From positions 1 through 64,000 of the forward strand of contig RSEH01000161.1 in assembly GCA_006503475.1 (NCBI GenBank): 64,000 nucleotides of DNA. The letters are read 5' to 3'. This stretch comes from Stentor roeselii. Lineage: Eukaryota > Ciliophora > Heterotrichea > Heterotrichida > Stentoridae. The position numbers and the translations under genes are program-made. Within the stretch, counting starts at the first letter, position 1, and every line of letters starts with the position of its first letter. Positions 1 to 64,000 of this stretch are shown here, in pieces. The notes beneath the pieces were generated by a model. That model saw nothing but the letters and a program-made list of their open reading frames with translations, made no database searches and was not told where the DNA came from.

Positions 1-1095
1 CAACGATACACTTACACCCTGATCGCCTGCAGCATCTGCTCAGTCACGATTTTTATTTTCAGCATCTTTCTAGTGGGCGATCGAGGAATAATCACTTTCA
101 TGTTCAAACCTGAACCACTTGGGGCAAGTCTCGGAGACGGGGCCATTTGGAAGCTGATTGTTTACTCTATCGGCAAGTTCTTCATGACGATCATGAGCAT
201 CACCTGCCCGATACCTTGCGGAGTCTTTACACCCATCTTCGCATTGGGCTCTGTGTTGGGAAGGCTTTACGGAGAACTCTGTCATTACCTGTTCTTTTCT
301 ACCCACCCTGGGGTCTACGCTCTTGTTGGAGCTGCGTGTTTGGCCTCTTCTGTCACTCACACCATCTCTGTCGCTGTTATCGTTTTTGAACTATCAGGGC
401 AAATCAACTATTTGCCTTTCATGCTTGTAGCTGTTCTCGCCAGTTATGCAGTAACTGTCTCGTTTTCTTCAAGCATTTATGACCTTCTCATCACTTTGAA
501 GAAAATTCCTTATATGCCTACTTTAAGGACTAATGAACTTTACATGAAAAAAGCGAAAGATGTTGCTGCGAATGTTGATATTTGTTTGCATAATGTCACT
601 TCGATAAGGAATGTCTGGAGAGCGATTGTTGATAATGCTACTAATTTGTACTGTATACCTGTTGTTGATGACTCAGGGTTTCTTATTGGAGAAGTGACTC
701 TTAAGAATTTGATAGAGTATGTCTTTGGAGAATATAAAAAAATCAGAGAAGGACTCGTCAATCGAGCGACTTATGATAATTATTTCAAGATGCTTCATGA
801 ACTCGTCAAGGATGAAAACGAGGTGCTTGACTGGTTAAAGTGCCAGAAAGAACTGATGAAATTCTGCTCTCATAGTTCAAGTATGGAGTCAGATCTAGAA
901 AAACTCTGGAGAACCAACGTGATTCTTAAATGTTCAGTTGACGTAGACTTGTCACCATTTAACATGAGTGACGATGCTTCAATGGTAAAACTTCACTACC
1001 TCTTCGTGGTGCTCAATCTAGGACATATCTACGTGGTCAGTCGAGGGCGTTTGACAGGAGTGATCACGAGAGAAATGTTCCTCACTTTACACTAA
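1..1095 (+). CDS. CLC-family chloride channel or Cl-/H+ antiporter, 3' part
   Basis: The reading frame is open from base 1, so the gene begins upstream, and 364 residues are visible. The sequence CGVFTPIFALG matches the GxFxP selectivity-filter motif of CLC proteins, and the following hydrophobic helices end in a typical last-helix segment (YDLLITLKKIPYMP). The remaining roughly 200 residues are cytosolic and fit a pair of CBS domains, with the final one around VVLNLGHIYVVSRGRLTGVIT. CLC proteins conduct chloride or exchange it for protons across plasma or vacuolar membranes. The gating glutamate lies upstream of the window, so channel and antiporter cannot be told apart. The frame stops with TAA, 25 bp before the next gene on the same strand. 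Confidence 0.9.
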   Translation, partial: QRYTYTLIACSICSVTIFIFSIFLVGDRGIITFMFKPEPLGASLGDGAIWKLIVYSIGKFFMTIMSITCPIPCGVFTPIFALGSVLGRLYGELCHYLFFSTHPGVYALVGAACLASSVTHTISVAVIVFELSGQINYLPFMLVAVLASYAVTVSFSSSIYDLLITLKKIPYMPTLRTNELYMKKAKDVAANVDICLHNVTSIRNVWRAIVDNATNLYCIPVVDDSGFLIGEVTLKNLIEYVFGEYKKIREGLVNRATYDNYFKMLHELVKDENEVLDWLKCQKELMKFCSHSSSMESDLEKLWRTNVILKCSVDVDLSPFNMSDDASMVKLHYLFVVLNLGHIYVVSRGRLTGVITREMFLTLH

Positions 1096-1120
1096 TAAGA
1101 TTCTTGTATCCAGGTAATAA

Positions 1121-3187
1121 ATGGATCGAAATTTCAATTTTCCAGTCCCGCCATACGAAGTCCAACAAGATTTCATGACAAATCTCTACGAATGTCTCTC
1201 GAATTGCAAGGTAGGCATCTTCGAAAGCCCGACAGGAACCGGAAAAAGCCTGAGTCTCATTTGCAGCAGCTTTCAATGGCTCAAGGACAACTCTGATAAA
1301 AAAGAAGAGGAATTCAAAGGTGACCTTGACTGGGTCAACCAGATCAAAGAACCGAAACTGGAGCCTTTAGGCGACATCACCAATTTAGAAGAAACAAAAG
1401 CACAGAGACATGCGACTGTCGAGCAGAAAATCGTTTACATCAGCAGGACTCACACACAACTTGACCAGTTTTTAAATGAAATAAAAAAAACCAAATGGAA
1501 AAATTCTATGAAAGTTGTTAGACTTGGCTCGAGAAATCAACTCTGCGTTAATCAGGACTTGATGAATTTGAAGTCCCGGTCAATGCTCGACCATCAATGC
1601 AAGGAACTGATTGACCCGACTAGTCCAGGGGATTGTCTTTATTATAAATCTGCCTCTAGGCTTCGATCACATGTTTTAGACACCTGCTGTGATATTGAAG
1701 ACCTTGTGAGTTATGGAAAGGCTCACTCGGCTTGTCCTTATTATGCCACTCGAAATGCTATTAACCCTGCAGAGGTTATTCTGGCACCTTACACGTTAAT
1801 TTTAAACAAAAGGAATAGGGACTCTATTGGACTGAATTTAGAAAATTGTATTTTGATTATTGATGAAGCGCATAATATTATTGAAGCTATGATTGATTGT
1901 TACTCTGCTTCTGTCACTAAAGCTCAGATTGAAGCTGCCTTGAATGCGATTATCTTGTATCATAAAAGATTTGCTAAAAAAGTAGGAGCTCACTCTGCTC
2001 TTTATTTTGAACATATTATTCAGATTCTTACCGCTTTTTTGAATTTTATGAAAAATAGAGGAAATAGTGCTGGGTCTATTAATATTGGAGAGTTTCTTAT
2101 TGATACCAAAACGGAAAAATTTGACTTTTACAAGATTTTAGCATTTTGTGAAGAATTTGAGTTTAGTAGGAAAGTTGTGGGGCAGAATGAGAAGTCAGGG
2201 AATCGTGGAAGTGTAATCGGCATAAACTCAGCATTCGAATTCCTGAGAGCTCTATCAGACGACATCAGTGCAGGAAAGATCTTCATAAACCAAAACGAAG
2301 AACAAAGCCTAAGATACTACCTAATGAACCCAAAACGTAAATTCGCTGAACTGACCGAACTAACAAAATGTTTAATCCTTGCAGGTGGAACAATGGAGCC
2401 TAGAGCTGAATACTTAGAACTCTTTTCTGAAATCCCCAACAACCGAATCAAGCTCTTTTCCTGCAGCCACATCATCAGTCCCGATAACCTTCTAATGGCA
2501 GTTGTGGGCAGAGGAGAAAGCGGACTCGAGCTGAAATTCACTTACGAAAACAGAGACAACAGTAAAATGACTGAAGATCTTCACAAACTACTACTCCAAG
2601 TCTGTCTAAACGTCCCAAACGGCATCGTGGTTTTCGTCCCATCTTACTTTTTTCTCACAAAACTCAAAAATTCCTTAGAAAAAAGTGGCACTGCTGAAAA
2701 AATCTCAAAAAAAAAGAAAGTTTTTTTTGATAATAAAGACGAAAATTTACTTGAAAATTTTTGTAGAGCTGCTGAAAACTTTGGAGGAATTCTTTTCGCC
2801 GTTGTTCGGGGGAAGTTGAGTGAAGGGATCAACTTCAGTGATCGACTTGGAAGGTGTGTGATCATGATTGGACTTCCGTATTTGAATAGAAATGATGTCG
2901 AAATCCAGGAGAGGATGAGATATTTGGACTCGAATAACAGGGAATTTAATGGCAGAATGTTTTATGAAAGTAGCTGTCATAAAGCTATTAATCAGTCTAT
3001 CGGCAGGGCTATTCGTCATCGACTTGATTATGCTGTTGTTTTACTGGTTGATCAAAGGTACAGCTCTTGCTTCGATAAACGACCTTCCTGGATGATGAGG
3101 AATATTGCAAAGCCAAACGAAGATCTCTTTGCTAAGGTCAGGGACTTCTTCAGATTCCATGAGAACCAAACAAGATCTCACAAATAA
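1121..3187 (+). CDS. DDX11/CHL1-like Fe-S DNA helicase
   Basis: This 688-residue protein is a superfamily 2 helicase of the XPD/RAD3 group, closest by eye to DDX11/CHL1. Walker A is SPTGTGKS (about residue 37), the DEAH box lies in LIIDEAHNI (about 245), and motif VI is QSIGRAIRH followed by a DQRY segment typical of CHL1/DDX11. Four cysteines between about residues 139 and 204 (in NQLCVNQ, HQCKEL, GDCLYY, SACPYY) fit the Fe-S cluster ligands of this family. Relatives unwind DNA 5' to 3' and support sister-chromatid cohesion and genome stability in the nucleus. At 688 aa it is shorter than vertebrate DDX11, mainly in insert regions. The start ATG follows TAATAA. FANCJ or RTEL1 are possible alternatives but less similar. 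Confidence 0.88.
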   Translation: MDRNFNFPVPPYEVQQDFMTNLYECLSNCKVGIFESPTGTGKSLSLICSSFQWLKDNSDKKEEEFKGDLDWVNQIKEPKLEPLGDITNLEETKAQRHATVEQKIVYISRTHTQLDQFLNEIKKTKWKNSMKVVRLGSRNQLCVNQDLMNLKSRSMLDHQCKELIDPTSPGDCLYYKSASRLRSHVLDTCCDIEDLVSYGKAHSACPYYATRNAINPAEVILAPYTLILNKRNRDSIGLNLENCILIIDEAHNIIEAMIDCYSASVTKAQIEAALNAIILYHKRFAKKVGAHSALYFEHIIQILTAFLNFMKNRGNSAGSINIGEFLIDTKTEKFDFYKILAFCEEFEFSRKVVGQNEKSGNRGSVIGINSAFEFLRALSDDISAGKIFINQNEEQSLRYYLMNPKRKFAELTELTKCLILAGGTMEPRAEYLELFSEIPNNRIKLFSCSHIISPDNLLMAVVGRGESGLELKFTYENRDNSKMTEDLHKLLLQVCLNVPNGIVVFVPSYFFLTKLKNSLEKSGTAEKISKKKKVFFDNKDENLLENFCRAAENFGGILFAVVRGKLSEGINFSDRLGRCVIMIGLPYLNRNDVEIQERMRYLDSNNREFNGRMFYESSCHKAINQSIGRAIRHRLDYAVVLLVDQRYSSCFDKRPSWMMRNIAKPNEDLFAKVRDFFRFHENQTRSHK

Positions 3188-4354: not shown

Positions 4355-6349
4355 ATGGATCCTTACACCGAAGTTTACACTTGGGGAAGCAACTCCTACG
4401 GCCAGATGGGTTTAGAGTCGAATTCCAGTCACTACCCAATCCCCCGAATCTGTTCATTCGGGGTGATAATCCAGCAAGTCTCATGTGGTCAGGAGCATTC
4501 AGCCTTTTTATCAAGTCAGCACTACGTCTACACAATGGGCAGCAACGCTGACGGTCGTTTAGGAATCAATGACAAGTTGATAGTAAACAGTTCCTACCCT
4601 TTACTCGTCGAGTCTCTTTCAGGAGTGAAAGTGACTCAACTGAGTTGCGGAGCCTTCCACACTGCAGCAGTCACTCACGAAGGAGACCTTTACACCTGGG
4701 GCAAGGGCGCCATGCTCGGACACGGCGACCTCGTCACTCGCTGGGCGCCTTGCAAACTCGACCTCGACTTGACTTTCGTCATTCAGGTCAGTTGCGGCCA
4801 AAGCCACTCCGCCATCGTCTGCATCAACAACAAGGAAAAGCTCTGCATGACCTGGGGCTCCGGCAGCGCAGGACAACTTGGAACCGGCTCTCGTGATACT
4901 CAAGAAAGACCTGCTCGCGCCTCCGTCTTCGACATCAAAGAAGTCGCCTGCGGAATCGACTTTACTCTTTTTCTTAACAACAGTGGCCAGGTCTTCTCTT
5001 GTGGAAATAACGGCAAAGGCCAGCTGGGACATGGCAATAGTCTCGACTTGTCAACTCCGAAAAGAATCAAGTCACTTGAAGGAATTTTCATTCAAAAAGT
5101 CGCAGCTTCAGGCCTCGCAGCATGTATCAGCGAAGACGGCACCTTGTTCGTATGGGGCGATTCGAACCTGTCACCGAAAAAAGTACGGGGTTGTCCGAAA
5201 GATATTAAAGAAGTGACTATTGGACTTAACTTCTTCGCAGCTTTGACCAGGACTTCAAGTCTTTGGACCATGGGCGAAAATAAACTGGGGCAACTTGGAG
5301 TAGGAGACTCTTGTGAAAGACAAGGCATTTTCTTGGTCGAGACCTTGAAAAATAAAAGAGTCAAACAGGTCGCGTGTGGACTTGACTTTGTCATCGCCCT
5401 TGGCGATGACTTGAAAAGTCCGCAGAAGTCAGAAAGAAAAGATTTGAGGGCTAGTGAGATGGACTCGAAAAGGAAAAAAGAAGGGAAAACTAATCGAGAG
5501 CAGTTCTGGAGTAGTGAAAGGAATGAAATTGATGAGAACTTGTATGAAAATGCACTTAAAAAAATGAACCTGCTGCTTTCTCAAACGGAAAAACAACTGC
5601 AGGTCGAGAAGGACTCACGGGTGAAAAACGAGGAATATAAAAAGCTTTATTATGAAATGGAGGAAAAATGTGGAAATATGATGAAAACCTTTGAAAGTGA
5701 AAGAACTAAACGAGAAGAACTAGAAATCATTCACACAAGAAATGAAGCTAAACTACTTCAAATCATCAGAGATAAAGAGGCAGAGGTTCTGAGACTAAAA
5801 AACGAAAACAAAGCACTTCGACTAAAAATCGAAAAAAAAGAACCTTGTTCATCTTGCATCAACATCCTCAGCGAGTTTCAAGGACTTAAAGCGAAAAACG
5901 AGTCAGTCCTTCAAGAAATCTCAAAAAAATCTCCAAATAAGCCAAATTTTTCCCCTGAAGGTTCAGGTCTTTACGTTCCTCAATCTCCAAGTTTCGACAA
6001 AAGTCTTGACAAGTCAATAGATCGTCACCAGCAGATCAACAACCAGTTAAAAGTCTCGAGATCTGAAAGCGAGTTATTAAAACTCATCGACGAAAAAAAG
6101 TCTTCAACAGAAAGAAACGACCCAAAATTAAGTTCCTTGAAGTTTGACCTGGAAGGCGAGGAAGAAGTCCCGATTCCGACTTTCCGAGGACAGGAAAACT
6201 CTTTTTCAATGCAGCGAAATCTGAAGACTTCCATCGCGGACATCAAGGCCAGGATTAACACCCTGAACTCGAATCGTTCAGAGCTTCAGAGCAAGATGGA
6301 AGAACTGGAAAATAAGCTGTTGAAAAGCACGCAGAGGTATTATGTATGA
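4355..6349 (+). CDS. RCC1-repeat protein with C-terminal coiled coil
   Basis: The first 350 or so residues are a chain of RCC1 repeats, each carrying a Gly-rich unit such as TWGSNSYGQMGLE, TMGSNADGRLG, TWGKGAMLGHG, SCGNNGKGQLGHG and TMGENKLGQLGVG, interleaved with VSCGxxHSA-type strands. This predicts a seven-bladed beta propeller. Residues from about 370 to 640 are charged and rich in Glu, Lys and Leu, predicting a long coiled coil, with a final short helix near the C-terminus. RCC1 domains serve as protein-interaction platforms or exchange factors; the coiled-coil fusion suggests a scaffold rather than the nuclear Ran exchange factor RCC1. The gene ends in TGA followed directly by TAA, and its stop overlaps the first possible ATG of the next frame. 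Confidence 0.9.
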   Translation: MDPYTEVYTWGSNSYGQMGLESNSSHYPIPRICSFGVIIQQVSCGQEHSAFLSSQHYVYTMGSNADGRLGINDKLIVNSSYPLLVESLSGVKVTQLSCGAFHTAAVTHEGDLYTWGKGAMLGHGDLVTRWAPCKLDLDLTFVIQVSCGQSHSAIVCINNKEKLCMTWGSGSAGQLGTGSRDTQERPARASVFDIKEVACGIDFTLFLNNSGQVFSCGNNGKGQLGHGNSLDLSTPKRIKSLEGIFIQKVAASGLAACISEDGTLFVWGDSNLSPKKVRGCPKDIKEVTIGLNFFAALTRTSSLWTMGENKLGQLGVGDSCERQGIFLVETLKNKRVKQVACGLDFVIALGDDLKSPQKSERKDLRASEMDSKRKKEGKTNREQFWSSERNEIDENLYENALKKMNLLLSQTEKQLQVEKDSRVKNEEYKKLYYEMEEKCGNMMKTFESERTKREELEIIHTRNEAKLLQIIRDKEAEVLRLKNENKALRLKIEKKEPCSSCINILSEFQGLKAKNESVLQEISKKSPNKPNFSPEGSGLYVPQSPSFDKSLDKSIDRHQQINNQLKVSRSESELLKLIDEKKSSTERNDPKLSSLKFDLEGEEEVPIPTFRGQENSFSMQRNLKTSIADIKARINTLNSNRSELQSKMEELENKLLKSTQRYYV

Positions 6350-8999: not shown

Positions 9000-9898
9000 G
9001 TGTAACTAGATGTTTAAATTTATATTATGGGAATGGTATTGTTTTGAGGGCTTTGATTGTTGATACTTTACAGTGATGGATTAAAAAGGTTTAAGAGGAA
9101 AAAGATTTGTTTTTTTGTCAATTTTTATGGTTTTTTAGAATTTCGATTAGCTATTCCAATATCGAATGAATGATGTTTTTGGAGTAAAAATTAATGAATA
9201 TTAGGTATTGTTTGTTGGCCTGTTTTTATAAAATAAAGATAGTAATTTTTAACTAGTTTTTAGGTATCGCTTGAGAGCAAGTTTTTTAAAATAAAGATAG
9301 TAATTTTTAACTAGTCTATTTAATATCCTGCTGCTGATTTAGGGTTTAGAAAAGAACTTGAAAAGACGATGATTAATTCTTAAATAATTCTATTATACGA
9401 GAATTCCTTGAACTTATCATGTAAGCTAACATGATTTAAAATATCATCTTACACTGATCTTTGATGAGTTTTACGTATTAAGGTACTCAAGAACTTAAAA
9501 TATTCGCCTGAAACCATATCCCTGCTCCTTAACCCCAATCCAAATCAAACTTTTACAATCAAAAACAAATCATCTAAATAACTCTAAATCCTAAAAAAAC
9601 CTAAAAAATTTCCCTACCTTGACAAGATCAATCTCCAATGAATCCATCCATTCTCCATATCGATTTATTTAAATTTTAAAGCACTAATCAAATGGTTAAT
9701 ATTATATAAATGGTCCTCTTTAAATTCAAACATCAATATAATCAAATTCTCTAAAAAAATCCTCTAAAATCCCCAAAAAAACCTGAAACCTTCAAGAAAT
9801 TCCTTCTTTACCCAAAAAAAAATCTTTTCTAAACCCAAATCAAATCGTATTCCAAACATCGCAAGTTAATTATCTCACTGACATTTTATACTAAATAA
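9000..9898. other. Gene-free spacer of about 900 bp
   Basis: No open frame of useful length is present. The left part is G+T-rich on the plus strand up to about 9350, and the right part (9480-9890) is strongly A+C-rich, so a skew switch lies near 9400-9480. The spacer contains a direct repeat at 9202-9318 and must hold the promoter of the glutamine synthetase gene. I found no tRNA cloverleaf. Confidence 0.6.
9202..9318. repeat. Two-copy direct repeat, unit about 59 bp
   Basis: Two head-to-tail units start at 9202 and 9261, each opening with TAGGTAT. The second half of the unit (AAAATAAAGATAGTAATTTT followed by TAACTAGT) is identical in both copies, while the middle of the first half differs. 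The repeat lies in the gene-free spacer downstream of the EF-hand gene. Confidence 0.85.
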
Positions 9899-15228: not shown

Positions 15229-15285
15229 TAGATTTGGTAATTTAGTTTCATAAAAAAACATAAAATTTAACAGAACCTTAAAAAT

Positions 15286-16463: not shown

Positions 16464-16582
16464 TGTTTATAACTTGGTAAAACTTTACTTGTGTAAATAT
16501 TCAAATTGTAAAAAAATCCTTATTTCAAATTCTTGTCTTTATCATTAAATCCACCTTTTCCTCAACTTCGATAATCCTGAAT

Positions 16583-20411: not shown

Positions 20412-20469
20412 TGATTTATTTTGACATTTTTAGCTAACTGAAATCAAATTTCTTATCGTTTTGGTATAA

Positions 20470-24974: not shown

Positions 24975-25089
24975 TTATAATTAGTTATAATAAAACTTTA
25001 ACACAAATGCGACGGAGGCTGGCACCTGTCAGTCTCCTACTAATCTTGTGTAAATTAACAGGAAAGGAAATCCTAATTTCCAAACATTA

Positions 25090-52073: not shown

Positions 52074-52576
52074 ATTATAAGGGCAGGGAATTATCTGAAA
52101 TTTCTTAGTTGAAATGATGTGAAGTGTCTGGAATATTTTTTTTTATAAAATGAATCTTGGGTTAGGTTCAAACTTTTAATTTTTTTGTGTTGAGCTAATA
52201 TTTGTAATGGTTTATGAAGTTTTCTTAAGGACTTTCAATAAATTCTAAAGTTGCATTCCATTTGCAACTTTAATGAAACTTTTCTATATTTTTTCCTAGC
52301 AATTATTTTAAGCTTGATTAATCCCTAGTTAATAGTCTCTATATACAATCAGATAAAGATTCTTTCCCTAATATTTATATTATTTACTTAAAATCCTCAT
52401 GCATCATAAAATTTTTTCCTTATTCCTTAACCTAATCCCTAAATTTAACAATCCTAAGCTATACCCACAAAAATCCCCATTAAAATATCCCAGCATAATT
52501 CCAAACCCAATACCCCTAGAAACCCTCAAAAATTAATTAAAGTCCTTCAATAAACCTCAATCCTAAATATTACATC
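52074..52576. other. Spacer between two minus-strand genes
   Basis: This 503-bp AT-rich region is G+T-biased on the plus strand at its left and extremely G-poor (about 1-4 G per 60 bp) at its right, with a switch near 52300. No gene or RNA is visible. It holds the promoter of the coiled-coil gene and the tail of the next gene. Confidence 0.55.
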
Positions 52577-54283: not shown

Positions 54284-54323
54284 ACCAGATTCACTTATCT
54301 ATCCCTCTCCACATATAAACCTA

Positions 54324-56639
54324 ATGAGTACCTCAAAGCTAAGGTCCATCAGTACAAATTCCCGTCTAAAAATTAACTCAAAACTGGACACGTCTGCTGT
54401 CCTGTCCAACGTCCACTCATCACTCGTGGGCTCATCCGTGAATTCTTTATCAAGATCTCGTGAAAAGCTGCCAATCAAACTTCCAAGACTGGCGCCTTCA
54501 AGCCGAGGAAGTAGTGTCGACACTTCCATAACCCAAGACTTAAGCGAAGACTCAATATCTTCTCTAAAGCAGAAGCTTTCAGACGAATGGGAAAAAAAAT
54601 CCGTGCCTGTTTCTTTACAAAAAATAGTCGCTGATAAGATCTGGACTCTTCCAAGACATAAAGCAGTTGCTGTCGCTTCTCGAGAACTTGAAGACTTGAA
54701 AAAGAACCGCTCTGCAATGATGACCGCAATCAGGGCAGTCACGGCGAGGGAAGAAAGCTTGAAAAGCATTTTTGAAATGGAAAATTTTTTGAAGCAGGTC
54801 CCGAATTGGGAGAAACTTAAAGATGTGCAGTTGGAATGTGCTGAACTTTTACATGCTCATCGCATTTTAAGTATCAATGCTGTGGAAAGTATTGAAAAGT
54901 GGAGAGAAGTTATTAGTTTCAGTGCACTTGTTAATAATGAAACTGGAAGTATTCATATTCCTTTTGTTTGGGAGGAGAGTAATTATTTGGTCAAGATGAG
55001 AAATGATTTGGATTTTTTGGTTAATTCGGAATTTAGAAAAGTTTTTCATTTTGATAAAAATGACCCTTTGCTTATTAAACCTTCTGTTCCTTCTATTAAG
55101 ATTAAGGAGAAGAAAATTGATAGCAATTATTTTATTCAGCATGGGCAGGTAGTAGTATCTCTCCCTTCATCACTCCGTCTAAAAGTAGACCTATCCGAAG
55201 AACTAATCGCCCGTGAACTAAAATTCGAAAACTCTCTAGAGCCAAAGCACCTGGAGGAGCTTTCCAACGTAATCTACGAAGAGCTCTGCGAAGAAGAAGT
55301 GACAAACGACGCAATTCTTTATTTCGGAAACAACAAAAGTGAAGTATTGAACCCTTTATCAGAAGCCCTTGCAGACGATCTTCTAAAAACTCTCCTTCAA
55401 GACGTGGTCAAAGATTCAAAAAACGAGCTAAACTCCATTCAAAATGAAAGTCTCGCCAAAGACCTGACAGAAAAACTAATCGAAAAAGAAATCGATTCAG
55501 TTTTAAAAGAAATCGCGATTTCCGAGCTAAAATCTCAAGAAAAGTCAAAAAAAGACCAGGCCCTCAAAGCCCAACGTCTTAAAGAAGAAAATGAAAACAT
55601 AGCCCGAAGCATTTACAATGATTTATTCAGTTCTCTTCTGGAAAACATGACAAGTGAAATTTTCTCTCAGATTTCCTTGGAAAAGAAAGAAGGAGAAGAT
55701 AAGGCAAAAGCAGCGAAAACTCAAAAAGACAATCAAATAATCGCTGAACGAATCATGACATCTTACATTGAAGAAGAAGTAAAAAAAGCTGTTGATGAAA
55801 TAGGTCAGGGTGTAAAAGACCAGCAAGTTGCTAAAAAATCATCAGAGCAACTTTATGAATCTTTGATTCTTCAACTTTTAACAGAAACCGCTTCCGAGGT
55901 TTTAAACGATCAAAAATCCCAAAAAGCTGCATTAAAATCAAAAGCGTTAAATGACCTCTCTGAGCAGATTTTCGCTTCTTTAGTCCTGGAGCTAGACCCA
56001 GACATTCAAGAGGTCTGTCAAAGTGCCTTTGACTACGAACTCCAGCTTTACTCAGACCGTTCAGAACTCATTGAAAACGTAGGTCTGGGTTTTTTAAAAG
56101 ATGACTGGGAAGACTCTTCCTTTTCCTTTAAAAAAATCAACACTCCTGAACTAGTCACTGACAAGTTAGTCCAAGAGTACTTCCCGAAGATCCCAGATGA
56201 GGAAAAATGCGTCACGGCCGATGAAGAAGTCCTTGATTCCGAGACCAGAGAACTGGAAGCTCAGTGGTTTTGGGGACTGAAAGGAAATGTCATTGTTGGA
56301 TTGTTGGTCTTTTCAGTGGACTTCGATAGAAATGACGTAAGGGTGATTAATGTGCATCATATCACTTGTCTTAACTGGAAGTTTTACCAGGTCTTCATTG
56401 AGCAGGCCGCGCAGTTCATTTGGGACTCGGACCATTGCCAGGAGCTGAGAGTTAATCTTTATGTTTCTGGAAGTCCTGAGATACCGACTCATATTAAAAA
56501 AGTTTTTAACACCCTACAGTTCAGGTGGAAGACTAACTTGGAAAAGGAGGAAGAAGAACTTTCTGTTGTAGTGATGGGAAAAATGAGACCTCAGATAAAA
56601 TTACAGAGTCCTAAGAAAAAACAACTGAGGAGAAAATAG
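54324..56639 (+). CDS. Large helical protein with possible GNAT-like C-terminal domain
   Basis: This 771-residue protein has a Ser-rich N-terminus, a helical region (about 90-250), and a long Glu/Lys/Gln helical stretch (about 280-560) with repeated patterns of the form EExARxIYxDLFSSLL and ESLILQLLTETASEVL. Residues about 625-760 look globular and mix strands and helices (GNVIVGLLVFSVDFD, VRVINVHHITCLNW, HIKKVFNTLQFRWKTN), in an order that recalls an N-acetyltransferase fold, but the acetyl-CoA loop is not clear. I cannot assign a family. Similar layouts occur in large ciliary proteins. Confidence 0.8.
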   Translation: MSTSKLRSISTNSRLKINSKLDTSAVLSNVHSSLVGSSVNSLSRSREKLPIKLPRLAPSSRGSSVDTSITQDLSEDSISSLKQKLSDEWEKKSVPVSLQKIVADKIWTLPRHKAVAVASRELEDLKKNRSAMMTAIRAVTAREESLKSIFEMENFLKQVPNWEKLKDVQLECAELLHAHRILSINAVESIEKWREVISFSALVNNETGSIHIPFVWEESNYLVKMRNDLDFLVNSEFRKVFHFDKNDPLLIKPSVPSIKIKEKKIDSNYFIQHGQVVVSLPSSLRLKVDLSEELIARELKFENSLEPKHLEELSNVIYEELCEEEVTNDAILYFGNNKSEVLNPLSEALADDLLKTLLQDVVKDSKNELNSIQNESLAKDLTEKLIEKEIDSVLKEIAISELKSQEKSKKDQALKAQRLKEENENIARSIYNDLFSSLLENMTSEIFSQISLEKKEGEDKAKAAKTQKDNQIIAERIMTSYIEEEVKKAVDEIGQGVKDQQVAKKSSEQLYESLILQLLTETASEVLNDQKSQKAALKSKALNDLSEQIFASLVLELDPDIQEVCQSAFDYELQLYSDRSELIENVGLGFLKDDWEDSSFSFKKINTPELVTDKLVQEYFPKIPDEEKCVTADEEVLDSETRELEAQWFWGLKGNVIVGLLVFSVDFDRNDVRVINVHHITCLNWKFYQVFIEQAAQFIWDSDHCQELRVNLYVSGSPEIPTHIKKVFNTLQFRWKTNLEKEEEELSVVVMGKMRPQIKLQSPKKKQLRRK

Positions 56640-56654
56640 TGTATTTAGAATTAA

Positions 56655-58127
56655 TTAAGTCGTGAATTTCACCATTAATAATATTAACTCGTCTTTTGAT
56701 AATGTTGACTTTCCCATCGCTTCTTCGAAAAGACTGGAAAATGATTCTAAGTCTGGATCCCCTGCTTCTTTACAGATATTCACAGCGTCAATCAAACCAT
56801 CAGAGTTATCGTCTAAGGACTCGAACACCGTCATCAATAAATTTTTATCTGAAATACGAGTCAAGGTTGTGAGAAAGTCCAAGTAAGCCATCGTATTATT
56901 CTTCAAAGAATCATACTGCTTAAAAACATCAAAAAGCACTTCAGAAAGCTCTTGGTACTCATCCGATAAACCCGCAAAAAACGTTTCAATCGCCTGAAGA
57001 GTCACAACTTTCAAATGTTGTTTATCTATTCTCTTCCAGATTTCCTCTAAAAAGTTAAGATTTGGAATCACTTTCCTCAACTCCATGATTTTTACCAACA
57101 TTTTCTTTAATTTATTCGCGAACTGAACTTTAATAAGATATTCTTGACTTGAATCAGCAGGTTTCAAGGCTTTTAAAAGCTTTAAAAGGACGAACTCTGC
57201 CATGCGATTTGAAAATTTCATCACGAACTTAGAGTCTAGAAGGTCTTCAGCGAAAGGTCTTGCAGATTCTTTTTGCAAGATGCTTTTAATGAAATTTTTC
57301 ATTGATTTCGGGAGTTTTTTCCAGTTATTTGACTTGGGAAGTTTGAAAGAAGAGATTCTTTTGATGATTTCTGCAAGGTTTTTCCCTTGGAACGGTTGAT
57401 GTCCGACGACCATGGAATAAAAAGTGACTCCGAGAGACCAGACATCACATCGAAGGTCGTAGTTTTCATTGAAGACTTCAGGAGCCATATAAAGAGCGCA
57501 TCCGAATTTTTCATTAAATCTTTCCCCAACAGCAGATGATGCAAAAGAGATGATTTTTACTGTAGTTTTTTCCTTATCGTAAAACATGATGTTTTCAATG
57601 CTCAGAGATCGATGCACCACTGACTGGCTCCTCATATAATCAACCGCATCCAACAGTTGGATGATAATCGGAAAGGCTTCTGAAAGACTCATCTGTTTAT
57701 AAGTAGCAAGATGGTCGTAAAGTTCTCCTCCTCTGCAATAGTCAAGAACCAGGTGAATGTATTTTGTTTCTAAAAACACTTCGTGAAGCTTGCAGATGTT
57801 CGGATGGTCAAGCATTAACAGTCCTTGAATCTCATTTAAAATCATTGAAAACTTCAGACCTTTTCGCTTCGCGAAGATTATGTCTGAGGATGACTCGCGA
57901 CCGTCGCCCAGGTAATAAGACTTTACTGCGAATCTTCTTGAATTTAAACGATTTGTGCAAACTCGGACTTCGGAAATTTGAGATTTTTTTCCTTCGTCTA
58001 GACGATGACCGATGTGGAACTTTTTTTTGATTTTAAGTCCGGCTTCTTGAAGCACTCGGGACTCTGGGTGTTGGGATTTTAGGTTGTTGTAAGAAACTTC
58101 TATTGCGGAGATCACTTCTTCATTCAT
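56655..58127 (-). CDS. CDPK-like pseudokinase with degenerate EF-hands
   Basis: Residues about 45-310 follow the layout of calcium-dependent protein kinases, with VAVK-like FAVKSYY (about 69), ALYMAPEVF and DVWSLGVTFYSM. But the catalytic loop reads HRSLSIENI instead of HRDLKPENI and the metal motif reads SFA instead of DFG, so both catalytic aspartates are lost. The glycine loop is also unrecognisable. The C-terminal 150 residues keep EF-hand spacing, yet the best loop (DDNSDGLIDAVN) ends in Asn rather than Glu. This should be a non-catalytic regulator or scaffold. The frame is otherwise intact, so it is not a decaying pseudogene. Confidence 0.87.
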   Translation of the reverse strand: MNEEVISAIEVSYNNLKSQHPESRVLQEAGLKIKKKFHIGHRLDEGKKSQISEVRVCTNRLNSRRFAVKSYYLGDGRESSSDIIFAKRKGLKFSMILNEIQGLLMLDHPNICKLHEVFLETKYIHLVLDYCRGGELYDHLATYKQMSLSEAFPIIIQLLDAVDYMRSQSVVHRSLSIENIMFYDKEKTTVKIISFASSAVGERFNEKFGCALYMAPEVFNENYDLRCDVWSLGVTFYSMVVGHQPFQGKNLAEIIKRISSFKLPKSNNWKKLPKSMKNFIKSILQKESARPFAEDLLDSKFVMKFSNRMAEFVLLKLLKALKPADSSQEYLIKVQFANKLKKMLVKIMELRKVIPNLNFLEEIWKRIDKQHLKVVTLQAIETFFAGLSDEYQELSEVLFDVFKQYDSLKNNTMAYLDFLTTLTRISDKNLLMTVFESLDDNSDGLIDAVNICKEAGDPDLESFSSLFEEAMGKSTLSKDELILLMVKFTT

Positions 58128-58159: not shown

Positions 58160-59179
58160 ATGAATCGGCTTATTGGATTTATTTGGATTTTTAGAAGGGT
58201 TTATGGGTTTCAATGCTTGATGTGTAGATTAGGAGGGTCTTTATGGATACAGTAAAGGAAAAATAGTGATTTTTATAGTTTTCAATCTTGTCCTTTAGGA
58301 TTTGATTGTAAATTTAATTGCTCTTGCTTAGAGAATTCTTTTGATTTGCAGAATTGTTTTTCAGATGACCTGGTTCAGTGTCCGAACCAAGCTGTAAGAA
58401 AAAATCAGTCATATTGTGGAAAAACTTATAGAACAACTGAAAAAGGAAGTTTTTCTAATTTTTTTCCAGGTTCTACTCTTTTTTACTGGGAATTCGATCT
58501 TAGAAGCTCGAAAAAGATTTCATCTTCAGTGAAATTCAAGCTTCATTATTCTTCGGATGTATAGACTATAAAGCTAAGTCCGACAGTATTGTTCCTGGTT
58601 TACTTCTTAGGCGATTCAGAACCTCGACCTAGTTTACTCTATTCAAAAGGCGAACTTCATAACGCGAATCTAAAACAAGCCGACTTGACAGGAAGTTATT
58701 TCGTGCTGATCTTTTGGCATCCTCAAGAAATGCAGGCAAAATTCGGATTTTCTTGGAATACTGAAGAAAAAAGTTCGGAAAATATTGATTTTAAGTTGTT
58801 AGCTTCGGTCTTGGTTCCTTGTTTTGTTTTCAGTTTAGCGATTTTATGCGGTTATAGCTGTTTTAGAAGGAGAAAATCTAGAAGAAGACAAAGGGTCAGT
58901 TATCAGGTTATTAGCAGGAGTGACTTGATGAATGACAGCTTTGTTGATAATTACTTTCCAGTCAAGTATTATTTAAGTGGGTTGGATGAGATCTGCCCTA
59001 TTTGCTTTGATGTGTAAGATTTTCTTAGGTTTAAAATTGGAGATGAAATCAGGAATACGAAATGTAATCATCTTTTTCATGCAAGGTGTTTTGAGGAATG
59101 GATTGAGTCACGACCTGCTCATTATTCATGTCCGATGTGCAAAACTGTGTTGTTCGAGTTTAACTATAGGGTTGATTAG
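58160..59179 (+). CDS. RING-H2 membrane E3 ubiquitin ligase, three 15-nt introns
   Basis: Exons 58160-58251, 58267-58558, 58574-59013 and 59029-59179 join to a 324-residue protein. The N-terminal half is Cys-rich and probably extracellular or lumenal (SCPLGFDCKFNCSC). A membrane helix follows at about 222-242 (LLASVLVPCFVFSLAILCGY), then an RRRKSRRR stop-transfer tail and a C-terminal RING-H2 finger: CPIC, CNHLFH, CFEEW, CPMC. Such proteins pass ubiquitin from an E2 to membrane or endosomal targets. The third intron splits the RING finger, and the finger is complete only after splicing. The start could instead be the in-frame ATG at 58220. It is divergent from the pseudokinase gene, 32 bp apart. 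Confidence 0.85.
58252..58266 (+). other. 15-nt intron
   Basis: The sequence GTAAAGGAAAAATAG splits a codon (CA|T). Retained, it gives TAA in frame. Removing it joins the upstream ATG frame to the Cys-rich region. Confidence 0.72.
58559..58573 (+). other. 15-nt intron
   Basis: The sequence GTATAGACTATAAAG contains an in-frame TAG at its second codon. Splicing joins SSD to LSPTVLFLV. Confidence 0.87.
59014..59028 (+). other. 15-nt intron inside RING finger
   Basis: The sequence GTAAGATTTTCTTAG interrupts a valine codon. Splicing joins CPICFDV to FKIGDE and completes the zinc-binding pattern. This intron has T rather than A at position 10. Confidence 0.93.
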
Positions 59180-59373
59180 AAATTTTATGAAAGTCTGGGT
59201 GAATTTTTATGATAAATTGATTTATCGAGGTAATATTAAATTTTTATAGTTTATATCAGGATGATTTATTAAAGTACTTCAAACATGATTAAACCAAAAA
59301 TTTTTAAACACTTTCCAGAAACCCAAAACAATAAAATTAAAAAAATGTTAACAAAATACCCTCTCCTGAAAAT

Positions 59374-60975
59374 CTACAAGTCCACACTAATCATATCAAG
59401 TAGCCTCTCAAGTCCATTTAAATGACTAGCAAAAACATCAGCCAATTTCTCAACAACAGTAACAACCTGCACAACTTGTACCTTTTCAGCACAATTTCCA
59501 CACAAGCTAACACAAACGCGAGCACAATCCTCACAAGCGACATGTCCACAAGGTACACAAACAAATCCCTTAATAAGATGCCTGAAACAAACAGAGCAAG
59601 CAAGAGTTTCCCTTGCATTTCTAATCATTTCTCCAGCAGCCTTAATAAAAAACTCACTTCCCTGAGTTGAACGACTTTTCGAGTCTTTTCCATTAAAAGG
59701 TCCTTTATTTTCAAGGTTTTCCACAATGACTTCAAGTTTTTCAATGAAACTATTTTTTTGAGCAAGTTGATTTTTATGATAAGTGTCGTTTTTTATTGAT
59801 TTTTCAAGTTGCTGCTTTACAGAAGATAACTCTTCCTCTAAGGCGAAATACCTCGCGTGCCATCTTGCTGCTTCTTCTCGTGAAATCTCATCAAAGAACT
59901 TCTGGTCAAGCCAAGTCTCTGACCTTCGGACGGACTGTGCAGGAGGCGTTCTTTTTCTTTCAAGTTGTAAGGATTGGGCGATGGTTTGAAGTCTTGAGTT
60001 CTCAGAAAGAAGATTTTCTTGAATGACTTTAAGTTCTTCGATTTGACTTTTAAGGGATTCTTTAGATTGCATGTGATTTAAAGTTTCGGTCAGATATCGA
60101 TTTTTTTCACTTTCGAGAAGTTCTTCTAGAGTTGAGAGTTGTTTGATTAATTTTAGGTTCTGGGAGTCTTTTGATTCGAGTTCGTTTTTTAGGAATTTTA
60201 TTTCATTTTCTTGTAGAGAGTTCTGAGAAGTGAGTTTTGAGACTTGTCTTTGTAAAATTACTAGTTTTGACTCGACATCATTCATTTGTTCATTTGCAGC
60301 TTTTCTTTTATTTTCACTTTTTTGCAGCATTTCTTGAAGTTCAGCTAATTCTCCAAGTTTATACTGAGCGTCTGACTGAGTTTCTTTGAGTTTCATTTCA
60401 AGTGACTTGATGACGCCATGATAAGATTTAAGAGAAGATTCAGCAGTTTGCCAGTTGATGACCAGTTTCGAATTAGTACTTTCAAGTCCTTTATTTTTTA
60501 CTTTAAGACTGTTGTTTTCACCTAAAAGTAAATCAATATAATCTTGCTGCTCATGAACCTTTTGCGACATTGACAAGAAATCCAAGTCATTAAAGCGAGT
60601 TTTAGTTTTCGACTCTCTTTTGTACTCAATTTCACTTTTTTTATTGTTAGAACTCACTGTTCCTTGCATGTAGTCCACCTGGCTCGGCTTGGCTTCTTCA
60701 ATTGAAGCATTTTTGCTGTGGTCTTCATTTTCCAGGTCTAGTTTTACAGAAGGCATCAGTCCTGGACTTGATTGAAAATTGAAAACATTTGGCTTTTTCG
60801 CTTCTTCAATCCTTTTAATGAACAACTCCTCAGGGGACTTGAAACTTGAAGTCAATTGGCCTGGACTTATCAAATTTTTCGGAGAGTTGTGACTACTGCG
60901 GCTTTGTTTTTTTATCAACGGCAGACCTTTGGTTTCTTTATGTTCGACTTCAATCAATTTTTTCTTTTTATTCAT
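59374..60975 (-). CDS. Coiled-coil protein with C-terminal RING-type finger
   Basis: This 533-residue protein has a basic, Ser-rich N-terminus (about 1-120), a long coiled coil (about 130-435, for example EIKFLKNELESKDSQNLKLI) and a C-terminal RING-type zinc finger: CSVC, then CVPCGHVACEDC, then CGNC. The GHxxCxxC core and spacing support an E3 ubiquitin ligase of the type found in coiled-coil RING proteins. The last 40 residues are hydrophobic and helical. The target is unknown. Start ATG lies in an AAATAAATG context, just after the sorting-nexin stop. Confidence 0.87.
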   Translation of the reverse strand: MNKKKKLIEVEHKETKGLPLIKKQSRSSHNSPKNLISPGQLTSSFKSPEELFIKRIEEAKKPNVFNFQSSPGLMPSVKLDLENEDHSKNASIEEAKPSQVDYMQGTVSSNNKKSEIEYKRESKTKTRFNDLDFLSMSQKVHEQQDYIDLLLGENNSLKVKNKGLESTNSKLVINWQTAESSLKSYHGVIKSLEMKLKETQSDAQYKLGELAELQEMLQKSENKRKAANEQMNDVESKLVILQRQVSKLTSQNSLQENEIKFLKNELESKDSQNLKLIKQLSTLEELLESEKNRYLTETLNHMQSKESLKSQIEELKVIQENLLSENSRLQTIAQSLQLERKRTPPAQSVRRSETWLDQKFFDEISREEAARWHARYFALEEELSSVKQQLEKSIKNDTYHKNQLAQKNSFIEKLEVIVENLENKGPFNGKDSKSRSTQGSEFFIKAAGEMIRNARETLACSVCFRHLIKGFVCVPCGHVACEDCARVCVSLCGNCAEKVQVVQVVTVVEKLADVFASHLNGLERLLDMISVDL

Positions 60976-60979: not shown

Positions 60980-62104
60980 TTAACTATCTTTTAAGATCTG
61001 CTCGTCAAACATCGTCTTCAATGGCATGAATTGAATGAAAATTTCGTCGATTTCACCTGAAATGCTTTCAGCGAACTTTTCGATTATGTGTCTGAAACTT
61101 TCATTTAAAGATTTTCTCAGTTGGGACACTTCAACGTTTAAAAACTTCTCAGTGACGATTTTGCAGATTTTTTCATAAGACTTAAGCTCGATTTCTAATT
61201 CTTGAATTTTTTTTTCTTGTTTGGCGACTCGTTGTTCTTTCGTTGTTTTTGAAAAAATCTGACTGATTTTTTTTTTTCCGGTTTTTTTTTCTTCTAGTTT
61301 TTTTCCTTCGATTTCAAGTTTTTCCTTTGTTTTTGTTTTTGATTTGATGAGTTTCGAGCGAGAAGAGATCAATTCAATGACTGCTTTGATATCTAGAATC
61401 ACTACTCGTGACCAGTCAAGTGGCAAGGAATAAGGATTTGAATAAGCAGGTCTTCTTGGAATTTCACTTGAAGAGAACTCATAAGTCTGTGAATAAAAAC
61501 TGGTGATTTCATTAATTCCTGAAATCATTTCATTCACCGAGTTCTCAAAACATGAAAAATTTTCAAAGACTGTTTTGCAAGACTGGCTGAAATTCTCTAA
61601 ATTATTCAAAAACACTGAAAAGACTTCAAACCACTTCTGAACTTTTGCATCTTCTTCAGGAAGAGAATGGAAAAATATAGACTCTTGGAAAAGTTCAGAG
61701 TAGTTCTCAGCTATTTCAACAGTAGTTTTTTCTTTAAAGTCTTCTGAAGTTTTACAGAAATCAGCAGAGCCTCGAAGAAAAGTCTGGACTTCTTCACAGT
61801 TGAAAAGGTAAGAAACTTGTGAAACTTTCACTAAGAAATCATTCAACAACTGCATTCGGGTCAACACGAAGTCCTGTCCTAAGTTGCCCTAAGTGACTTT
61901 TACAATCATTTGTTTTCCTGGAATGCTTGGAATGAGAAGGCCTGGCCATCTTCGAAGAAGAGATCTGCGAAGAGAGTTGAATTCTTTATAACGTCTTCTG
62001 CAGTGAAATTGACCTTGTGAGTCATGTCCTGAGATTAAATAATTCACGTGTTTTCGAAGTTTTGCATCTTTGAAAACGGGTTCTGTCACTTGAATGAAGA
62101 TCAT
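60980..62104 (-). CDS. PX-domain sorting nexin with C-terminal BAR-like helices, one intron
   Basis: Exons 62104-61904 and 61888-60980 encode 369 residues. The first 110 residues are a PX domain: RRYKEFNSLRRSL (the phosphoinositide-binding Arg region), the proline loop LIPSIPGKQM and then, across the splice junction, GQDFVLTRMQLLNDFL. The rest is a long helical region with a Lys-rich segment (KKTGKKKISQIF), as in sorting nexins with BAR domains (SNX1/2/5). These bind PI3P-rich endosomal membranes and act in retromer-type recycling. The two halves look like separate genes until the intron is removed. Confidence 0.9.
61889..61903 (-). other. 15-nt intron within PX domain
   Basis: On the minus strand the sequence is GTAAAAGTCACTTAG, with an in-frame TAG. 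Splicing joins GKQMI to GNLGQDF and restores a continuous PX domain. Confidence 0.95.
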
Positions 62105-62209: not shown

Positions 62210-63571
62210 ATGATTTCAAATTTTAATAGAACGAACTCGATTTCGCCTTTGAAAGGGTCGAAGGACTTGGAAGGTCATATTGATCGACTTAATCGCGCAC
62301 TTAGCATCGCCATGCAGGAGATTGAGTCTCATCCGAGTACTTCTAGGGTTTCTTCACGATTTTCTATACTTCCGGTTGAGTTTGAAAATCAAATTGAATC
62401 ACCTTCTTATAGGTCGGAAGATCTGCAACTCCCTTACGAATTCGAGCAAAAGATAGAAGAACTGCTCCTGACCGTAGACCGCAGCCAAATGATGATAGAA
62501 GATTTTATATCAGAACACTCCCGAGGTCTCTTAAAGCCAATGAAACCCGCTGAACCCACCGAGAAATGTTCACATGACCTATTCCTGATTCGCCACGAAA
62601 TCGAGTTAAACCTGAAACTTCAAAGAAACAAAGAACTCGAAAAAGAACATCAAGAATTCCAAGAAAAACTCGATTCTCTAGACCGTCTAAACGACCAGTA
62701 CTCTAAAAAAAAGGCAGAAGTGACGATTTTATTCGAAAAACTTGCTGAAAAAGAAAAGCTTTTAAATGAAAAAGAAAAAGAACTCAGGGCAAGTCGAATG
62801 GCCTTTGATCGACGAAAAACGATCTGGGAACAAGAAAAAGAAAACGAAGAAAACGAGATGCCTCATATAAAACCACCGAAATTTTCCTCTACAAATACAA
62901 ACCCACTTAGAAGTTCAATGCCCTGCTCATGGCCTTCTTTAAAACCAGATTCAAGTTCTGTGTTCAAAAATGGAGCTCCTGGCTTCCAAGCAACTATCGA
63001 GTCTTGTCAATACGAATTAAGTGAAAAGGTGGAAGAACTGGAAAAACTTAAAAATACAAAAATTGACTCCTCGAAATTGGAAATGCAAATTGACTCATTG
63101 AAAAATAAAATCGCTACTCTTAGAGGAGAGCAGGTCATGAAGATGTCTTGTCAGTCTTCGAAAATTTTAAGTAGTTTGGTTCAAACTATGCAGAAACAAA
63201 ATATTCGAGATGAAATTGCGAGGGATAGAAAAGAAATTGTTGAAAAAATAAACTCCAGTTTTAAATGTGATAATAGGGAAGTTTTTAAAATCAAACAACT
63301 TGAAGTTAAAATGCCTGAAAAAACTGAGACTAAAAGAAGGTTTTTGTTTTCTGATGCTCCTACTCCTAAAAGTATTCTTACGCCTAGGACTTGTGAGAAG
63401 GAAGATCCTTATAAGGTTTATTTTGAGAATAAGAAAAAGATGATACAGGAAAAAGAAATGGAGTTGGCGGAGAAGGAGAAACTTTTAAAGGATGTTTTTA
63501 GGGAAATTATTGTTAAGTATCCGGATGCTAAGGATATTATTGGACATTTGAAGAGGAGGAATAGGGGGTAG
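62210..63571 (+). CDS. Coiled-coil protein, 453 aa
   Basis: Predicted coiled coils lie at about residues 125-215 (for example EKLLNEKEKELRASRMAFDR) and about 255-310. They are separated by a Pro/Ser-rich linker and followed by a basic C-terminal region that contains TPKSILTPRT, a possible proline-directed kinase site. The C-terminus has a second charged helix (KEMELAEKEKLLKDVF). I recognise no family. The ATG has an AAATAAATG context, 105 bp from the divergent sorting-nexin start. Confidence 0.8.
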   Translation: MISNFNRTNSISPLKGSKDLEGHIDRLNRALSIAMQEIESHPSTSRVSSRFSILPVEFENQIESPSYRSEDLQLPYEFEQKIEELLLTVDRSQMMIEDFISEHSRGLLKPMKPAEPTEKCSHDLFLIRHEIELNLKLQRNKELEKEHQEFQEKLDSLDRLNDQYSKKKAEVTILFEKLAEKEKLLNEKEKELRASRMAFDRRKTIWEQEKENEENEMPHIKPPKFSSTNTNPLRSSMPCSWPSLKPDSSSVFKNGAPGFQATIESCQYELSEKVEELEKLKNTKIDSSKLEMQIDSLKNKIATLRGEQVMKMSCQSSKILSSLVQTMQKQNIRDEIARDRKEIVEKINSSFKCDNREVFKIKQLEVKMPEKTETKRRFLFSDAPTPKSILTPRTCEKEDPYKVYFENKKKMIQEKEMELAEKEKLLKDVFREIIVKYPDAKDIIGHLKRRNRG

Positions 63572-63695
63572 GTAGTGTTTAGGTAAGTTTTGATGATTCT
63601 TGATATTTTTTTGGATTATTTAAGTAGATTGATAGGCAGTTCGATATTGCCAAGATTAATATTTTCACCCAATTCCAAATCCCTACATCTCTAAA

Positions 63696-64000
63696 TTATT
63701 TACTCATCAAAGCTTGAGCAAGTTCTTGAAAACTAATATAACCATTATCATCAGAGTCAAACTCATTGAAAACCTTTTCGATTTCATCCTCGTCAAAAGG
63801 TTCTCCTCCAGAACAAAGAAACTCTCTCAGTTCCTCTCGGCTGATTTTCCCATCTCCGTTGATATCAAGACTATCGAACAGTTCCTGAAGTTCCTCTTGC
63901 TTTCTAGTTGTTTTCCCAGTAAATTCAAAGTAAGCTCCAATAAATTCATTGAAGCTTAAAGCTCCGTCTCCTGAAACATCGTAAGTATCAATCAAATCCT
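63696..64000 (-). CDS. EF-hand protein, 3' part (CDPK or calmodulin-like)
   Basis: The minus-strand frame is open to the window edge, so the start lies outside. Three EF-hand loops are visible: DVSGDGALSFNE, DINGDGKISREE and DSDDNGYISFQE. All have Asp at position 1, Gly at 6 and Glu at 12, so all should bind calcium. The third is followed by ALMSK and the stop TAA. The spacing and sequence fit the calmodulin-like domain of a calcium-dependent protein kinase or a free calmodulin-like protein; the missing 5' part would decide. Confidence 0.9.
   Translation of the reverse strand, partial: DLIDTYDVSGDGALSFNEFIGAYFEFTGKTTRKQEELQELFDSLDINGDGKISREELREFLCSGGEPFDEDEIEKVFNEFDSDDNGYISFQELAQALMSK

What the first reader, a model, noticed from the sequence alone, without database searches (positions are those of the whole stretch)
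1..64000. Sawtooth strand-composition domains of about 1-2 kb across the whole window
The plus strand repeatedly ramps from A+C-rich to G+T-rich and then switches back within tens of bases. Hand counts of G+T per 60 bp: 14341-14400 has 34, 14401-14460 has 17; 17101-17160 has 33, 17281-17340 has 18; 24841-24900 has 37, 25081-25140 has 19. The pattern spans coding and non-coding DNA and includes several switches inside single open frames. Because a ramp of this kind equals its own reverse complement, each strand is A+C-rich at the 5' side and G+T-rich at the 3' side of every unit. I know of no described genome feature of this size and shape in ciliates.
Basis: partly seen in the sequence, partly recalled or inferred. 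Interest (0 to 1): 0.87.

Follow-up and report, generated by a model that had tools for sequence, protein, structure and literature searches.

The report
Two-sided strand-bias footprints, possible break sites
Along this ciliate-like DNA, base choice flips abruptly at dozens of points, many of them inside genes, in the way expected if DNA had been cut repeatedly at the same places and its exposed ends had mutated, so the sequence may record where the germline breaks.

Summary
All six hand counts are exact. Synonymous sites carry strand-composition domains far beyond a codon-preserving shuffle: variance of 300-bp z-scores 6.08 against 1.50. Sharp drops outnumber sharp rises: 27 against 11 at z>=4 (shuffle means 0.3 and 0.5); in gene interiors at z>=5, 8 against 1. 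T4 and E. coli controls lack it.

The shape needs correcting. These are not ramps filling 1-2 kb but point-centred footprints: G+T excess for about 400-500 bp left of a point, A+C excess for the same distance right, then nothing, whatever the distance to the next point. I list 36 points, 22 in coding sequence. C and A are depleted on the left, G and T on the right.

That polarity is the published mutation signature of resected DNA flanking human meiotic breaks (PMC7615360). Best explanation, about 50%: position-stable germline break sites. Rivals: gene-end skew as in fungi (26 of 31 genes have the sign), DNA-elimination sites, replication. No whole genome, germline sequence or relatives were available; the mechanism is inferred, not shown.

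The parts
2189..2251 (.). step-down point (G+T left, A+C right), in CDS
   Evidence: z 6.5
3038..3157 (.). step-down point, in CDS
   Evidence: z 5.1
5646..5704 (.). step-down point, in CDS
   Evidence: z 4.3
9338..9424 (.). step-down point, intergenic
   Evidence: z 5.1
11486..11571 (.). step-down point, intergenic
   Evidence: z 5.3
14371..14434 (.). step-down point in SMC2 gene
   Evidence: z 7.3; placed at 14397-14408 by the +/-200 bp fit
15222..15274 (.). step-down point, intergenic
   Evidence: z 3.9
16536..16580 (.). step-down point, intergenic
   Evidence: z 4.8
17204..17272 (.). step-down point, in CDS
   Evidence: z 6.7
18603..18656 (.). step-down point, in CDS
   Evidence: z 4.1
20318..20431 (.). 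step-down point, in CDS start of GST-like gene
   Evidence: z 3.8
22459..22521 (.). step-down point, intergenic
   Evidence: z 4.4
24105..24204 (.). step-down point, intergenic
   Evidence: z 5.3
24936..25049 (.). step-down point at the start of a SHIPPO-repeat gene
   Evidence: z 5.3
25907..26028 (.). step-down point, in CDS
   Evidence: z 4.1
31009..31088 (.). step-down point in cyclase paralogue 1
   Evidence: z 4.7
32624..32722 (.). step-down point in cyclase paralogue 1
   Evidence: z 4.1
35327..35407 (.). step-down point, intergenic
   Evidence: z 4.4
35760..35863 (.). step-down point, intergenic
   Evidence: z 3.9
39723..39807 (.). step-down point in cyclase paralogue 2
   Evidence: z 4.2
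42117..42183 (.). step-down point, intergenic
   Evidence: z 4.0
45374..45439 (.). step-down point in cyclase paralogue 3
   Evidence: z 5.7
46238..46312 (.). step-down point in cyclase paralogue 3, at the edge of a conserved tract
   Evidence: z 5.2; tract
47058..47119 (.). step-down point in cyclase paralogue 3
   Evidence: z 4.7
49117..49233 (.). step-down point, intergenic
   Evidence: z 3.6
49998..50107 (.). step-down point in dCache-domain gene
   Evidence: z 6.5
52285..52423 (.). step-down point, intergenic
   Evidence: z 5.9
53526..53618 (.). step-down point, in CDS
   Evidence: z 5.5
55123..55187 (.). step-down point, in CDS
   Evidence: z 6.6; placed at 55142-55162
56748..56795 (.). 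step-down point, in CDS of a kinase gene
   Evidence: z 4.8
58265..58399 (.). step-down point, intergenic by my ORF set
   Evidence: z 3.6
59243..59323 (.). step-down point, intergenic by my ORF set
   Evidence: z 6.4
60302..60412 (.). step-down point, in CDS
   Evidence: z 3.7
61395..61472 (.). step-down point, in CDS
   Evidence: z 3.6
62402..62470 (.). step-down point, in CDS
   Evidence: z 5.7
63572..63647 (.). step-down point, intergenic
   Evidence: z 7.8

Best explanation
Each step-down marks a place where the germline DNA has been broken again and again over evolutionary time. After a double-strand break the 5' strands are resected. This leaves the + strand single-stranded for about 400-500 nt to the left of the break and the - strand single-stranded to the right. 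Mutations in the exposed strand remove C and A (for example C>T and A>G), so the exposed strand drifts to G+T. On the + strand this reads as G+T left, A+C right, with an abrupt change at the break and fading outer edges because tract lengths vary. SHOWN: the two-sided footprints, their polarity, sharp centres at about half of them, fixed reach, presence at synonymous and noncoding sites and inside ORFs, and little correspondence between paralogues. INFERRED: that the cause is breakage and resection, that the breaks are germline (most simply meiotic, Spo11-type), and that the sites stayed put long enough to shift composition.
For: Polarity and spectrum: left of steps fourfold sites are A .218 C .100 G .184 T .498, right A .427 C .213 G .082 T .278, far A .330 C .163 G .156 T .352; noncoding DNA has the same signs. 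[quoted passage not shown]). Fixed reach: half-profile 0.15-0.39 over the first 400 bp in all three interval classes, -0.04 to 0.06 from 600 to 1600 bp in the 13 intervals over 1.7 kb. The detection-free autocorrelation of synonymous sites is negative from 350 to 750 bp (-0.029 at 450-550; shuffle sd 0.002), near zero beyond. Sharp centres, softer outer edges; randomly placed dipoles with soft outer edges reproduce the form of the autocorrelation. The T/C shift is positive in all eight one-sided neighbour contexts, so it is not one narrow deaminase motif. Step neighbourhoods are enriched in AT words (ATATA in CDS z 4.1, null 95% limit 3.6), as open chromatin might be.
Against: No break, germline or mutation data exist for this genome here. 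Human hotspots lack asymmetry in the central +/-100 bp, whereas here the change falls within about 30 bp. GC is not raised near steps (fourfold GC .284 left.295 right.319 far), so there is no sign of GC-biased conversion. The one clear conversion tract, between paralogues 1 and 2, begins near weak steps only: one case, not a test. Codon positions 1+2 shift the expected way but not significantly (13 of 19 steps, P=0.077). The G/A shift is absent before C (0.08, se 0.11). Part of the signal follows gene ends. The random dipole model predicts more skewness and fewer drops than seen. One site per about 1.6 kb, many in ORFs, is dense for meiotic hotspots (general knowledge).
Confidence: 0.5

Rival explanations
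1. Transcription-linked strand bias at nucleosome-poor gene ends, as proposed for unicellular fungi: different mutation or repair regimes at initiation and termination make the coding strand A+C-rich at its 5' end and G+T-rich at its 3' end; interior steps would be cryptic starts or ends inside genes.
For: 26 of 31 genes are more G+T-rich in their 3' than in their 5' 450 bp; 13 of 37 steps lie within 250 bp of a stop codon against 8.1 expected (P 0.015); noncoding positions have a higher mean step score than CDS interiors (1.44 against -0.28). Same sign as in fungi (PMC3315797).
Against: Sharp drops in gene interiors, at least 500 bp from either end: 13 down and 4 up at z>=4. No excess at start codons (8 of 37, null 7.9). 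AT composition swings too, unlike the flat AT skew in fungi. The signal does not scale with the interval.
Confidence: 0.2
2. The steps are sites of programmed DNA elimination or chromosome breakage (IES junctions or alternative telomere sites): a germline-only segment sits at each point, and processing there, or the segment itself in the germline, imposes the bias on both flanks.
For: Density and placement resemble a relative: Blepharisma has about forty thousand IESs, about 70% intragenic where genes are 77% of the assembly (PMC9942856), in a 41-Mb genome (PMC9942806), so about one per kb by my division; here 36 points in 64 kb, 22 in CDS. Three 15-nt GTA...TAG introns suggest a heterotrich relative of Blepharisma. 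Step positions differ between paralogues. TA and AT dinucleotides correlate with step score.
Against: Elimination happens in the developing somatic nucleus, so its mutations should not be inherited (general knowledge). TA is not significantly enriched at the exact steps (P 0.135; resolution 25-75 bp). No germline sequence was available.
Confidence: 0.17
3. Replication: forks meet at fixed barriers at the steps, or fire from origins there with an A+C-rich leading strand.
For: Replication can cause strand-symmetric skew with polarity changes at points (general knowledge).
Against: Reach is fixed at about 450 bp and does not fill the intervals; point spacing of about 1.6 kb is far below known replicon sizes (general knowledge).
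Confidence: 0.05
4. Chance, protein or codon-usage effects, or a detector artefact.
For: Free-sign smooth bumps fit held-out sites better than step-downs, and 64 kb is one sample.
Against: Codon-preserving shuffles, held-out sites, detection-free autocorrelation and two control genomes.
Confidence: 0.03

Closest known systems
Strand-asymmetric mutagenesis around human meiotic double-strand breaks (PMC7615360)
   Same: Two-sided; polarity switches at the break; C and A lost on the forward strand left of it, G and T right of it; reach related to resected ssDNA.
   Different: There an excess of rare variants over about 2 kb, without asymmetry in the central 100 bp; here an established composition difference, about 450 bp each side, asymmetric to within about 30 bp of the centre, one per about 1.6 kb and often inside ORFs. 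No breaks were measured here.
Opposite GC skews at gene 5' and 3' ends in unicellular fungi (PMC3315797)
   Same: Coding strand C-biased at 5' and G-biased at 3' ends, also at fourfold sites and in flanking noncoding DNA; the gene-end part of the present signal has the same sign.
   Different: Tied to gene ends, gradual, GC only (AT skew flat). Here sharp steps occur in gene interiors and T-A swings too. The words recombination, double-strand and meiotic do not occur in the text held.
Subtelomeric skew of ciliate nanochromosomes (PMC7858049, PMC2633312; passages)
   Same: GC skew at the 3' subtelomere of coding strands, with forward and reverse strands similar according to the Halteria paper.
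   Different: Confined to chromosome ends; in Nyctotherus mainly a purine skew over about 130 nt. Here the points are internal to a continuous 64-kb sequence.
Replication skew domains (bacterial replichores, mammalian N-domains; recalled)
   Same: Strand-symmetric polarity changes at points.
   Different: Much larger, fill the replicon, and sharp jumps are upward at origins.

Membership tests
Meiotic DSB hotspot mutation footprint | Loss of C and A on + left, of G and T on + right | tested here: met
   against PMC7615360
Meiotic DSB hotspot mutation footprint | Finite two-sided reach, independent of neighbouring sites | tested here: met
Meiotic DSB hotspot mutation footprint | No asymmetry in the central +/-100 bp (human) | tested here: not met
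   G+T share 0.59 in the 30 bp left and 0.45 in the 30 bp right of 22 chosen steps
Meiotic DSB hotspot mutation footprint | Raised GC from GC-biased conversion (recalled as usual at hotspots) | tested here: not met
   local GC flat, fourfold GC slightly lower near steps
Meiotic DSB hotspot mutation footprint | Gene conversion at the sites | tested here: inconclusive
   one paralogue tract near weak steps
Meiotic DSB hotspot mutation footprint | Physical breaks in germline nuclei | not testable with these tools
   needs break or ssDNA mapping
Fungal gene-end GC skew | Coding strand C-biased 5', G-biased 3' | tested here: met
   26 of 31 genes by the combined G+T measure; G-C alone was not scored per gene
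Fungal gene-end GC skew | Pattern tied to gene ends | tested here: not met
   interior steps 13 down, 4 up at z>=4; gene ends do contribute
Fungal gene-end GC skew | AT skew flat along genes | tested here: not met
   T and A both shift around steps
Ciliate IES junctions | TA at the junction | tested here: inconclusive
   no significant TA excess at 27 chosen steps, resolution 25-75 bp; TA and AT both correlate with step score regionally
Ciliate IES junctions | Germline-only segment at each site | not testable with these tools
   no genome held for the window
Replication skew domains | Skew fills the interval between points | tested here: not met

The most novel reading that the evidence does not exclude
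The step points are position-fixed, programmed germline break sites about every 1.6 kb, many inside open reading frames and possibly where germline-limited DNA sits, whose resection has written strand-asymmetric mutations into the inherited genome; the assembled sequence alone would then map break sites to within a few tens of bases and show resection length.
Probability: 0.35. Interest if true: 0.9.

Novelty: new variant of a known kind. Interest (0 to 1): 0.78.

Why it matters
If right, an unannotated assembly alone would give break positions, break density and resection lengths of a germline without a germline experiment. The stability of break sites, their targeting inside genes and the mutational cost of breakage would become testable in a protist. 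It also suggests a possible common cause for gene-end skews in fungi, which PMC3315797 explains by transcription, and shows that synonymous codon choice here depends strongly on position relative to points invisible in the annotation. If the cause proves to be transcription or DNA elimination, the footprints are still a strong positional record of that process.

Tried and rejected
Whole-genome test: no genome is held for this window, so everything rests on 64 kb. Relatives: two scans of viral contigs gave none; I did not scan the prokaryotic genome collection, and metagenome scans are capped at 0. Motif: words of 4-7 bases around 22 hand-chosen sharp steps gave GATATA/TATATC at 6 of 22 (expected 0.32; z 6.3 against a null 95% limit of 4.6), but of its 20 sites in the window several show no step. 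Kept as an AT-rich association, not a motif. TA at exact steps: not significant. Regular spacing: interval CV 0.59; random placements give means 0.65-0.86 with sd 0.08-0.18, so regularity is not shown. Square-edged arms: simulations give as many or more rises than drops, unlike the data. Soft-edged dipoles fit the form of the autocorrelation but give skewness 0.79-1.61 against 0.53, and 17-27 drops against 36. The 11 rises found by a narrow detector also reach about 400-500 bp before reversing, as expected where arms of neighbours meet; so the reach alone does not separate drops from rises.

Choices that affect counts: 31 ORFs used. Of 31 ORFs of >=150 aa I dropped 54299-54769 (-), which overlaps 54324-56639 (+), moved one start (8244 to 8259) and added 25090-25428 (-). 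Introns were not modelled; three short 3' exons behind 15-nt introns (found after the analyses) were treated as noncoding. Searches used hand-merged step lists (37 or 38 points drawn); searches used subsets of 22, 27 and 20 (19 usable). The list in 'parts' is the automatic one (36 points, z>=3.5). One search left out sites within 30 bp of, or 450-800 bp from, the nearest step, and isoleucine codons. The paralogue correlation left out the converted tract and the conserved 3' end.
Full report
WHAT THE WINDOW IS. The 64 kb are 35% GC and gene-dense; 31 ORFs in the standard code cover 83%. Contents include an SMC2, RCC1 repeats, a chloride-channel domain, DEAD_2/Helicase_C_2 helicase domains, kinases, TPR, GST, dCache and a SHIPPO repeat, and three tandem genes of about 2,020 aa, the first of which has P4-ATPase and guanylate cyclase domains. 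Three 15-nt introns of the form GTA...TAG can be read directly at 21634-21648, 23713-23727 and 25669-25683 (minus strand). Blepharisma, a heterotrich ciliate, has mostly 15- and 16-bp introns but reads UGA as tryptophan (PMC9942806). I infer a ciliate, probably a heterotrich with the standard code; the species was not identified and no genome is held.

IS IT A SAWTOOTH. The contrast between drops and rises is real but moderate in a 64-kb sample. Skewness of differences has P=0.009 at 180 bp and is weaker or absent at other scales. Step-down templates predict held-out sites far better than step-up templates (377 against 130 at a 500-bp decay with 60 atoms, mean of 4 splits; best up setting 183), although free-sign bumps do better still (458). 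Reversing random 4-kb blocks reaches the observed contrast in 2 of 200 trials. Drops as a set fit abrupt transitions and rises broad ones, but 12 of 30 drops individually fit broad transitions best. Gene interiors show it most clearly (skew 0.86 against 0.35 elsewhere).

SHAPE. The average around steps, measured on sites not used to find them, is a plateau of about +/-0.25 to 400 bp, near zero by 500-600 bp. In 13 intervals longer than 1.7 kb the middle is flat; reach is similar in short and long intervals. The autocorrelation of synonymous sites, which needs no detection, is positive to about 250 bp, negative from 350 to 750 bp (-0.029 at 450-550, shuffle sd 0.002) and within +/-0.009 beyond. 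So the units are point-centred dipoles with arms of roughly 400-500 bp, not ramps. Two of the sharpest centres are placed at 14397-14408 and 55142-55162 by the +/-200 bp fit; the smoother detector gives wider ranges, and effective widths over 27 steps are 23-78 bp.

CHEMISTRY. Relative to distant DNA the left side loses C and A and gains T and G; the right side is the mirror image, at fourfold, twofold and noncoding sites. Log-odds shifts toward the G+T side are 0.66 for T/C and 0.50 for G/A. GC content hardly changes. Codon positions 1+2 lean the same way without reaching significance (P 0.077).

WHERE. Of 36 steps 22 are in CDS and 14 between genes. Compared with 83% coding this is an excess between genes, though the detector has more power there. 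Genes tend to be A+C-rich at the 5' and G+T-rich at the 3' end (26 of 31). Among the cyclase paralogues, the strong steps near 31,060 (paralogue 1) and 45,420 (paralogue 3) have no counterpart at the aligned place in the copy compared, and synonymous signals outside the converted tract and conserved 3' end correlate weakly (r 0.12 and 0.11, P 0.26 each; 0.29, P 0.02). So positions do not follow the protein and have largely turned over since these copies diverged, or arose since.

MECHANISM. A process that starts at a point, acts on opposite strands on the two sides, has finite reach with soft outer ends and depletes C and A on the + strand left of the point is what 5' resection of a double-strand break predicts. 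That mutation signature has been measured at human meiotic hotspots (PMC7615360: section 4 and passages read, not the whole paper). The inference here runs from signature to cause; no break has been seen. The main rival, transcription-linked skew as in fungi (PMC3315797: parts 1 and 2 of 4 read, plus a word search), explains the gene-end share but not the sharp interior steps. Elimination or breakage sites of ciliate development match in density and in lying inside genes (PMC9942856 and PMC9942806, passages; PMC11441545, passages, adds nothing on this point) but lack an obvious route into the germline and show no significant TA excess at the steps. Replication fails on fixed reach.

LITERATURE. 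Eight searches of the held library listed at most 25 papers each, and I saw titles and abstract starts only; none of those reports such footprints in a ciliate or reads break sites from established composition. Subscription papers are mostly not held, nor is the bioRxiv library. The nearest ciliate reports concern chromosome ends (PMC7858049, PMC2633312; passages). PMC3411245 (passages) reports that T-DNA insertions in a fungus favour promoters and high CG skew.

VERDICT. Mechanism about 50% break-and-resection. The full-assembly run and break or polymorphism data would settle it.

Noticed in passing
33188-33655 and 39903-40370 (also 46238-46705): Cyclase paralogues 1 and 2, elsewhere mostly 28-68% identical in protein (85-93% in parts near the 3' end), share a roughly 470-bp tract at 92-100% DNA identity, which looks like recent gene conversion; paralogue 3 shares the tract with paralogue 1 at 72-94%.
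   Followed up: partly
21634-21648, 23713-23727 (+), 25669-25683 (-): 15-nt introns of the form GTA...TAG that hold the in-frame stop; in the two tandem amino-acid transporter genes they lie at matching places and the frame behind them is alike in both. Typical of heterotrich ciliates.
   Followed up: partly
29114-48241: Three tandem genes of about 2,020 aa; the first was scanned and has P4-ATPase and guanylate cyclase domains, the others align to it.
   Followed up: partly
9242-9256 and 9300-9314: Two identical 15-bp strings of tiny-intron form (GTA...TAG) in a stretch without a long ORF.
   Followed up: no
16320-16460: Short degenerate tandem repeat in an intergenic gap, seen in the sequence; not run through a repeat finder.
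   Followed up: no
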